This document shows, one piece after another, positions 51,479 to 52,532 of a stretch of DNA of 64,000 bases. The notes under the pieces are model-generated. The model did not search any database. It was not told the origin of the DNA and worked only from the letters and a program-made list of their open reading frames with translations. This stretch comes from a virus. Numbering within the stretch: position 1 is the stretch's first letter; each line of letters begins with the position of its first letter. The position numbers were made by a program, and so were the translations under genes. The stretch spans positions 58,420-122,419 of IMG/VR virus record IMGVR_UViG_3300036832_000855; one strand, written 5' to 3'.

Positions 51479-52024
51479 TTGAAGCGATTGACCCTCACGG
51501 CCAGCCTCGCGCTGGCCGTTGCCGTTCCAGCGAGTGCCCAGGCGCAGTTATCGCACTCGCAGACCACCGCCTACGGAAAGGCGTACGCCCACGTCAGAGC
51601 CACATTCGGCGCTCGGGCAGCCGGGTGCAAGCTCATCGGGCCCGGCGCCTCGTGCAACGGGTCCGCGACCGACGCTCGGATCCTCGCGTCGACCGACGTG
51701 CTGCACCGAATGTTCGCGCCGAGGCCGGTGTACAGACCGGCCCCGACGCACTACTCCAGCACCCAGTACAGCTACCACGCAGCGAGCCCGAGCTACCACA
51801 GTTCTGGTTACGGCGGGGGTGGTTACAGCGATGTGCCGGGCGTGCCGCCCGGGTTCGCGTCCTGCGTAGCGCAGCGCGAGTCGACGAACGGCGCGGGCAG
51901 CTCGAACATCTACGGCATCCAGGGGCCGGGCGGGCAGGGCAGCCTCGCCGAGCAGAAGCAGGCGTTCAGCCAGATGTACGCCAGCCGCGGCTCGCAGCCG
52001 TGGTCGCCGTACGACGGATGCTGA
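51479..52024 (+). CDS. secreted transglycosylase-like (Rpf-like) protein
   Basis: 181 residues, plus strand, TTG start at 51479 with AGGAG upstream. A clear signal peptide: MKRLTLTASLALAVAVPASA. A linker of Tyr/Ser/Pro follows. The C-terminal 60 residues (GFASCVAQRESTNGAGSSNI, YGIQGPGG, AFSQMYASRGSQPWSPYDGC) match the resuscitation-promoting-factor transglycosylase core, with a candidate catalytic Glu in QRES and a Cys pair. It would cleave peptidoglycan outside the membrane. Unusual in a phage lytic operon. Confidence 0.72.
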   Translation: MKRLTLTASLALAVAVPASAQAQLSHSQTTAYGKAYAHVRATFGARAAGCKLIGPGASCNGSATDARILASTDVLHRMFAPRPVYRPAPTHYSSTQYSYHAASPSYHSSGYGGGGYSDVPGVPPGFASCVAQRESTNGAGSSNIYGIQGPGGQGSLAEQKQAFSQMYASRGSQPWSPYDGC

Positions 52025-52025
52025 C

Positions 52026-52532
52026 GTGGCAGCTCTACTGGCGGCGGCCGTCGTGGCCGTCGCCCCCAGCCACGCGTGCCCGAAGACGTTCACCGGGCCG
52101 ATGATCCAGAGGGCCGTCAGCATGGCCTACCGCGGCACGAGGGACGTCCCAGCGGCCGACCGGGCCCACCTGAGGCGCTACCTGCGCTGCGCCCGCCCGA
52201 ACGTCTCCAGGGCGCGCATACGGGCCTACAGGACCCGTGTGATCGCGGCCTGGCGGCTGCGGCGCGACCCGCCGATGAACGGGCCGGTGACGGCGTCCTG
52301 GTACGGGCTGGGCGGGTCCGGCGCGTGCGGCGTCGACGTCCAGTCGGGCCTGCGGTTCGCGAGCCTGTTCCTGCCGTGCGGGGAGGTGATCCGGATGTGT
52401 CACGGCTCCGCTTGCGTTCAGGCAGAGATGGCCGACCGCGGGCCATACGTCGGCGGTCGGGCCTTCGATCTCAACGCCAACCTGCGCGACGCGCTTGGCT
52501 GCGGCGATCTGTGCGAGGTGACCTGGCGGTAG
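52026..52532 (+). CDS. secreted RlpA/expansin-like double-psi barrel protein
   Basis: 168 residues, GTG start at 52026, 1 base after the previous stop. A short hydrophobic start and a basic region (RYLRCARPNVSRARIRAYRT) are followed by a double-psi beta-barrel-like domain: TASWYGLGGSGACGVDVQSG, RFASLFLPCGEVIRMCHG, MADRGPYVGGRAFDLNANLR. The ASWYG, DRGPY and DLN motifs are characteristic of RlpA-like septal transglycosylases and expansins. Likely cell-wall acting, together with the Rpf-like gene. Confidence 0.72.
   Translation: MAALLAAAVVAVAPSHACPKTFTGPMIQRAVSMAYRGTRDVPAADRAHLRRYLRCARPNVSRARIRAYRTRVIAAWRLRRDPPMNGPVTASWYGLGGSGACGVDVQSGLRFASLFLPCGEVIRMCHGSACVQAEMADRGPYVGGRAFDLNANLRDALGCGDLCEVTWR

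What the first reader, a model, noticed from the sequence alone, without database searches (positions are those of the whole stretch)
51479..52532. Divergent plus-strand pair of secreted cell-wall enzymes in a phage
An Rpf-like transglycosylase with a signal peptide and an RlpA/expansin-like protein, separated by one base and ending in a strong terminator, lie in the middle of a minus-strand block of small genes. They are not typical lysins: Rpf-like enzymes restart dormant actinobacteria and RlpA-like ones cut septal glycans. The phage may wake host cells or alter their walls (inference).
Basis: partly seen in the sequence, partly recalled or inferred. Interest (0 to 1): 0.65.

Follow-up and report, generated by a model that had tools for sequence, protein, structure and literature searches.

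The report
Phage-borne secreted wall-enzyme gene pair
A large phage that probably infects actinobacteria carries, away from its ordinary lysis genes, a tight two-gene cassette for exported proteins that look like cell-wall-cutting enzymes (a cut-down 'wake-up factor' lysozyme and an RlpA-like barrel), and a second, apparently unrelated phage carries the same pair.

Summary
Window 51479-52024 (p1, 181 aa) and 52026-52532 (p2, 168 aa) are real, tandem, Sec-signal-bearing plus-strand genes inside a minus-strand block, followed by two hairpins. The same pair, same order, 4-bp gap, occurs in another phage contig (L010, 84.8 kb) with no detectable relative of this phage's capsid protein. p1 ends in an Rpf/transglycosylase-like domain: no direct Pfam match, but a graded series of relatives links it to PF06737 and to actinobacterial secreted Rpf-like proteins. 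The putative catalytic Glu (E134) is invariant, yet the window version and three of its four phage relatives lack Rpf helix 2 (the 'PSTW' segment). p2 has a phage-type N-terminal two-Cys module plus an RlpA-like DPBB domain with both active-site Asp positions (D137, D148) kept, but no SPOR domain or lipobox. The phage has a separate GH24 endolysin and a tail lysozyme, so the pair is accessory to lysis. Best reading: a moron-like cassette whose exported products remodel the host wall. 'Waking dormant hosts' is possible but untested. Precedents exist (Rpf-type motif in a mycobacteriophage tape measure; RlpA in cyanophages), so this is a new variant of a known kind.

The parts
51299..51478 (+). 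intergenic region upstream of the pair; presumably holds its promoter (not shown). RBS AGGAG at 51469-51473
   Evidence: sequence; no sigma70-type site found by the simple scan
51479..52024 (+). p1: exported protein with an Rpf/transglycosylase-like C-terminal domain (181 aa, TTG start)
51479..51538 (+). p1 predicted Sec signal peptide (residues 1-20)
   Evidence: by inspection of the translation; similar MK-R/K start in L001, L010, L020
51836..52021 (+). p1 shortened Rpf-like domain (residues 120-181); invariant E134 (putative catalytic Glu), C129, C181, W175; lacks the helix-2 'PSTW' segment
   Evidence: alignment with phage and bacterial relatives; PF06737 reached through L021 and L026
52026..52532 (+). 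p2: exported protein, N-terminal two-Cys helical module plus RlpA-like DPBB domain (168 aa, GTG start)
52026..52076 (+). p2 predicted signal peptide (residues 1-17, no positive n-region; no canonical lipobox)
   Evidence: by inspection
52077..52277 (+). p2 N-terminal module (C18..KTFT..M..RA..Y.GT....C55), predicted three helices; so far convincingly seen in phage proteins only
52278..52529 (+). p2 DPBB (RlpA/expansin-like) domain with invariant D137 and D148
   Evidence: PF03330 in 5 of 5 members of A4; profile hit to PA4485 structure 4avr E 4.7e-6; Foldseek top hits are DPBB folds
52533..52557 (+). hairpin 1 after the pair
   Evidence: -13.9 kcal/mol, z -4.2
52563..52590 (+). hairpin 2, GC-rich, between convergent genes; terminator-like but weak T-tract
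   Evidence: -25.2 kcal/mol, z -3.5; not called by the simple scan

Best explanation
The pair is an accessory, independently oriented ('moron'-like) cassette. During infection both proteins are made in the host, exported by its Sec pathway and act on the peptidoglycan glycan strands outside the membrane. p1 would be a minimal Rpf-derived lysozyme-fold muramidase/transglycosylase (or at least a glycan binder), p2 a DPBB-type lytic transglycosylase using an Asp as in MltA/RlpA. Together they loosen or remodel the wall of an actinobacterial host, most likely helping growth of the infected cell, progeny release or later lysis, while the main lysis is done by the GH24 endolysin encoded elsewhere. 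Shown: the genes, their pairing and conservation, domain homology, conserved putative catalytic residues, a separate endolysin. Inferred: export, catalysis, joint action, timing, benefit.
For: Pair conserved in order and spacing in a contig without a relative of the same capsid protein, in both cases transcribed against its neighbours. p1 domain linked to PF06737/RpfC through L021 and to secreted Rpf-like proteins, one with LysM, of Streptosporangiales. Invariant Glu and purifying selection on the domain. p2 DPBB by profile with both Asp positions kept in all eight aligned sequences. The Asp is catalytic in P. aeruginosa RlpA (D168, PMC9712689) and MltA/YuiC (D308/D162, PMC4499186). Separate GH24 endolysin and tail lysozyme PF18013.
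Against: p1 lacks Rpf helix 2, so activity is uncertain; its AlphaFold model is poor (pLDDT 48). p2 scores below the DPBB_1 cut-off on its own and its model is weak (pLDDT 57). p2's signal peptide lacks a positively charged n-region. No promoter was identified. Co-function rests on two pair-carrying contigs; L001, L020 and L021 have p1-like without p2-like next door.
Confidence: 0.55

Rival explanations
1. Dormancy countermeasure: p1 acts like a secreted Rpf that restarts or keeps growing non-dividing host cells (the infected cell or neighbours), with p2 assisting wall remodelling.
For: Rpf-type domain and secretion signal. A SigB/F/G-like sigma factor gene lies 2 kb away, and such phage sigma factors can alter dormancy in Bacillus (PMC9429907). 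Host rpf genes rise during phage WC1 infection of Rhodococcus (PMC10986025). An Rpf motif occurs in the tape measure of mycobacteriophage Barnyard, and another tape-measure peptidoglycan-hydrolase motif (mt3 of TM4) helps infect stationary cells (PMC1796659).
Against: The domain lacks helix 2. The other pair-carrying contig has no Sigma70_r4 match. A secreted protein made after infection cannot help entry into the same cell.
Confidence: 0.12
2. Second lysis system: signal-peptide endolysins that are exported and degrade the wall at the end of infection.
For: Sec signals on muralytic-type domains; in L020 the p1 relative lies next to a VanY-type endolysin gene.
Against: A complete GH24 endolysin (PF00959) and a membrane protein that could be a holin sit together about 104 kb away in the record. 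The pair is not next to them.
Confidence: 0.18
3. Virion- or entry-related wall enzymes that end up on particles.
For: In L001 the p1 relative lies between a peptidoglycan-binding protein gene and the protease/capsid genes.
Against: Sec signal peptides; here the pair lies about 28 kb from capsid genes and against their direction; the tape measure already has a tail lysozyme.
Confidence: 0.1
4. Superinfection exclusion: the exported proteins change or mask the wall so that further phages cannot enter.
For: Moron-like layout; export signals.
Against: No integrase-type gene found (PF00589, PF00239), so little sign of lysogeny; no direct support.
Confidence: 0.05

Closest known systems
Resuscitation-promoting factors (Rpf, PF06737; RpfC 2n5z/4ow1)
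   Same: Secretion signal; lysozyme-like C-terminal domain with invariant Glu, two Cys and the conserved 'Q..A...Y...G...PW' end; reached through L021 and L026
   Different: No direct profile match; first Cys five residues before the Glu instead of adjacent; helix 2 missing; no proven activity
RlpA / DPBB_1 lytic transglycosylases (PF03330; MltA/3D group as mechanism)
   Same: DPBB domain; D137 and D148, 11 apart like MltA D297/D308
   Different: No SPOR domain, no lipobox, below Pfam cut-off and no TIGR00413 match; an extra N-terminal two-Cys module
Rpf-type and mt3 motifs in mycobacteriophage tape measure proteins (Barnyard; TM4)
   Same: Phage use of Rpf-type or other wall-cutting motifs; the mt3 motif helps infection of stationary cells (PMC1796659)
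   Different: There the motif is inside the tail; here it is a separate protein with an export signal and a partner
RlpA-like genes of cyanophages and Sinorhizobium phages
   Same: Phage-borne DPBB proteins
   Different: The match covers the DPBB only, not the N-terminal module; presence of an Rpf-like partner there was not checked
Firmicute Sps proteins (non-orthologous counterpart of Rpf; SPbeta YorM)
   Same: The two domain classes found side by side here resemble the two that replace each other in Rpf/Sps (PMC1084345, PMC4499186)
   Different: Sps is the MltA/3D version of the fold; p2 is RlpA-like

Membership tests
Rpf (PF06737) | profile match of the protein itself above the curated cut-off | tested here: not met
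   no match
Rpf (PF06737) | homology through intermediates | tested here: met
   L021 (49% identical in the domain) hits PF06737 3.7e-5, NCBIfam RpfC 6.7e-5 and RpfC structures 8e-4; hhalign of the short phage domains against canonical Rpf 96.4% but only over the 34 C-terminal columns
Rpf (PF06737) | catalytic Glu at the end of helix 1 | tested here: met
   E134 aligns with the Rpf-type CES Glu, invariant in 11 of 11; Glu16 of RpfC in PMC4648573
Rpf (PF06737) | helix 2 / hydrophobic pocket segment (RpfC Pro37-Gly44) | tested here: not met
   about 10 residues missing in window, L001, L010, L020; present in L021 and bacteria
Rpf (PF06737) | conserved disulfide between the two Cys | tested here: inconclusive
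   C129 and C181 present, but the first Cys is shifted four residues
Rpf (PF06737) | muralytic and resuscitating activity | not testable with these tools
   needs protein
RlpA (PF03330 DPBB) | DPBB domain | tested here: met
   alone E 0.008, below cut-off; family profile hits 4avr at 4.7e-6; 5 of 5 members match PF03330, best 9e-9; Foldseek best hits DPBB, weak
RlpA (PF03330 DPBB) | catalytic Asp | tested here: met
   D137 and D148 invariant in eight aligned sequences; spacing as MltA D297/D308
RlpA (PF03330 DPBB) | SPOR domain | tested here: not met
   no SPOR match in the whole-protein Pfam scan
RlpA (PF03330 DPBB) | lipoprotein signal | tested here: not met
   PSHA-C is not a lipobox, and the Cys is not at the same cut position in L010; by inspection
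Moron (autonomous accessory gene cassette) | transcription unit opposed to its surroundings, with its own signals | tested here: inconclusive
   opposite strand in both pair carriers, hairpins after it; promoter not found
Phage lysis cassette | next to the endolysin/holin genes and the only endolysin | tested here: not met
   GH24 endolysin at record 5993-6526

The most novel reading that the evidence does not exclude
A mobile phage cassette pairs the two unrelated wall-transglycosylase classes that replace each other in bacterial resuscitation/stationary-survival proteins (Rpf-type and DPBB-type), built on a shared N-terminal targeting module, and serves to break host dormancy or stationary-phase wall resistance. 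The shared module is hinted at by L020, an Rpf-like protein whose N-terminus matches the p2 module better than any of 19,892 shuffles (profile E only 0.0045-0.011).
Probability: 0.1. Interest if true: 0.75.

Novelty: new variant of a known kind. Interest (0 to 1): 0.42.

Why it matters
If active, p1 would be an unusually small Rpf-type enzyme and would show what part of the fold is dispensable. A phage-made, exported Rpf-like protein with a DPBB partner would offer a way to test whether phages manipulate dormancy or wall state in actinobacteria, and might supply small wall-active enzymes.

Tried and rejected
Direct Pfam, PHROGs and NCBIfam scans and PDB searches with p1 gave only noise. The first genome-contig scan with the p1 domain alone found nothing; the alignment did. 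I considered that the missing RlpA-type His in p2 (Ser or Asn in all but one of the phage relatives) meant a dead enzyme; rejected, because bacterial DPBB relatives show the same Ser/Asn variation. I considered the pair as the lysis cassette; rejected after finding the GH24 endolysin. I considered a dormancy module with the sigma factor; weakened, since the other pair carrier has no Sigma70_r4 match. Structure models of p1 (pLDDT 48) and p2 (57) are too weak to argue from, beyond a DPBB hint for p2. A search for the p2 N-module in 396 Actinomycetota genomes gave noise-level matches only. No relatives at DNA level in cultured phages.

Full report
WHAT IS THERE. Two plus-strand ORFs, p1 (51479-52024, TTG start behind AGGAG) and p2 (52026-52532, GTG), lie one base apart in a block whose other called genes are on the minus strand, a nearby sigma-factor gene apart. 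The window is positions 58420-122419 of a 122,419-base IMG/VR virus record. No integrase or resolvase family rings in the record, though its completeness is unknown. After p2 come two stable hairpins before the convergent gene that ends at 52594; the T-tract is weak and the simple terminator scan does not list them.

IT IS CONSERVED. p1 has a full-length relative in phage contig L001 (54%) and domain relatives in L010, L020 and L021. p2 has relatives in L002-L004, L010 and L015, and DPBB-only relatives in L016 and L017. L010 (84.8 kb contig) carries the pair itself: p1-like 3578-4198, p2-like 4203-4733, also against the strand of its neighbours. The L010 record has no detectable relative of this phage's putative major capsid protein (21362-22426), while L001's has one, so the cassette seems to travel between different phage backbones. 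Both starts (TTG, GTG) and the tight junction are kept in L010. Codon divergence shows purifying selection, strongest on the p1 C-terminal domain (dN/dS about 0.25).

P1. Residues 120-181 form the conserved domain. Direct profile searches fail. The L021 relative matches PF06737 (3.7e-5), NCBIfam RpfC (6.7e-5) and the RpfC structures 2n5z/4ow1 (8e-4). A profile of five phage domains finds proteins of a Streptosporangiales MAG and another actinobacterial MAG that end in the same '...PWAPYDGC'; one of them carries a LysM domain and PF06737 at 1e-5. Aligned together they form a series from canonical Rpf to the window form. The Glu after the first Cys is invariant, but window, L001, L010 and L020 lack about ten residues that in RpfC are helix 2 (Pro37-Gly44; PMC4648573). 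So p1 is Rpf-derived but not a complete Rpf; whether it still cuts is open. The AlphaFold model is too poor to help.

P2. The C-terminal part is an RlpA-type DPBB: E 0.008 alone, 5 of 5 relatives in alignment A4 match PF03330, best 9e-9, family profile against PA4485 structure 4avr 4.7e-6, and weak Foldseek hits that are all DPBB at the top. D137 and D148 are invariant and 11 residues apart, like MltA D297/D308 (PMC4499186). The RlpA catalytic Asp is D168 in P. aeruginosa (PMC9712689); equating it with D148 rests on motif alignment and was not checked against that sequence. Similar DPBB proteins are common in the Actinomycetota sample (190 of 396 genomes match the profile). There is no SPOR domain and no lipobox. 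The N-terminal module (two Cys, three predicted helices) was not convincingly found in those genomes. The Rpf-like protein of L020 carries a similar N-terminus: best of 680 scored ORFs apart from the true p2 relatives (E 0.0045) and above all 19,892 shuffles. This is suggestive of one module joined to either of two enzyme classes, the pair of classes known for non-orthologous displacement in Rpf/Sps proteins (PMC1084345).

NOT THE LYSIS CASSETTE. A GH24 endolysin (PF00959, 9e-38) with a small membrane protein next to it lies at record 5647-6526, and the tape measure has a tail-lysozyme match. The pair is therefore accessory.

MECHANISM. Most likely the two proteins are exported by the infected host and cut or bind glycan strands, changing wall strength during infection (inference, 0.55). 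Waking of dormant cells (0.12) is possible: host rpf genes rise in phage WC1 infection (PMC10986025), mycobacteriophage tape measures carry Rpf-type or mt3 motifs and the TM4 mt3 motif helps infection of stationary cells (PMC1796659), and a SigB/F/G-like sigma factor gene is nearby (such factors alter dormancy in Bacillus, PMC9429907). But the second pair carrier lacks a sigma-region-4 match, and a protein made after entry cannot help entry into the same cell.

HOST. The host is inferred only: GC 68% and the nearest bacterial relatives of both domains in Actinomycetota point to an actinobacterium; nothing shows it directly.

NOVELTY. RlpA-like genes in phages are known, as is the Rpf motif in tape measures. 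A separate, shortened Rpf-like protein with an export signal, in a conserved pair with a DPBB protein, was not found in the annotated phage collection (single-sequence tblastn is not very sensitive). I rate it a new variant of a known kind.

Noticed in passing
window 54421-55101 (+): Sigma-70 family factor closest to SigB/SigF/SigG (TIGR02980 8.9e-20, below its cut-off). The best cultured-phage matches include Bacillus phage Eldridge SigF.
   Followed up: partly
window 53698-54402 (-): Collagen-like (Gly-X-Y) protein with a signal peptide by eye, next to two small membrane proteins (53233-53574); with the pair this makes a cluster of envelope-directed genes.
   Followed up: no
window 33827-35404, 43785-46574; record 8069-14040: A motif like 'LHPRGRGGKW' recurs in several long proteins, one with two PG_binding_1 domains, and similar motifs occur in L001 proteins. 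Function unknown; perhaps a virion or processing tag.
   Followed up: no
window 10101-14981 (-): Tape measure with tail lysozyme (PF18013) and a C-terminal stretch that looks NlpC/P60-like by eye.
   Followed up: no
window 61232-61882 (-): Protein matching Vps62 (PF06101, 3.7e-7), unexpected in a phage.
   Followed up: no
L020 4256-5020 and 6644-7924: The p1 relative of L020 lies beside a VanY-type endolysin gene; a GH27 alpha-galactosidase-like gene (by eye) follows.
   Followed up: no
L026 2425-3210 and 4674-5273: Two near-tandem Rpf-like paralogues with signal-like N-termini (one with LysM) in a Streptosporangiales MAG, both ending in 'PWAPYDGC'.
   Followed up: partly
window 39853-39927 and 40515-40598 (-): tRNA-Glu(ctc) and tRNA-Thr(agt) genes.
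   Followed up: no
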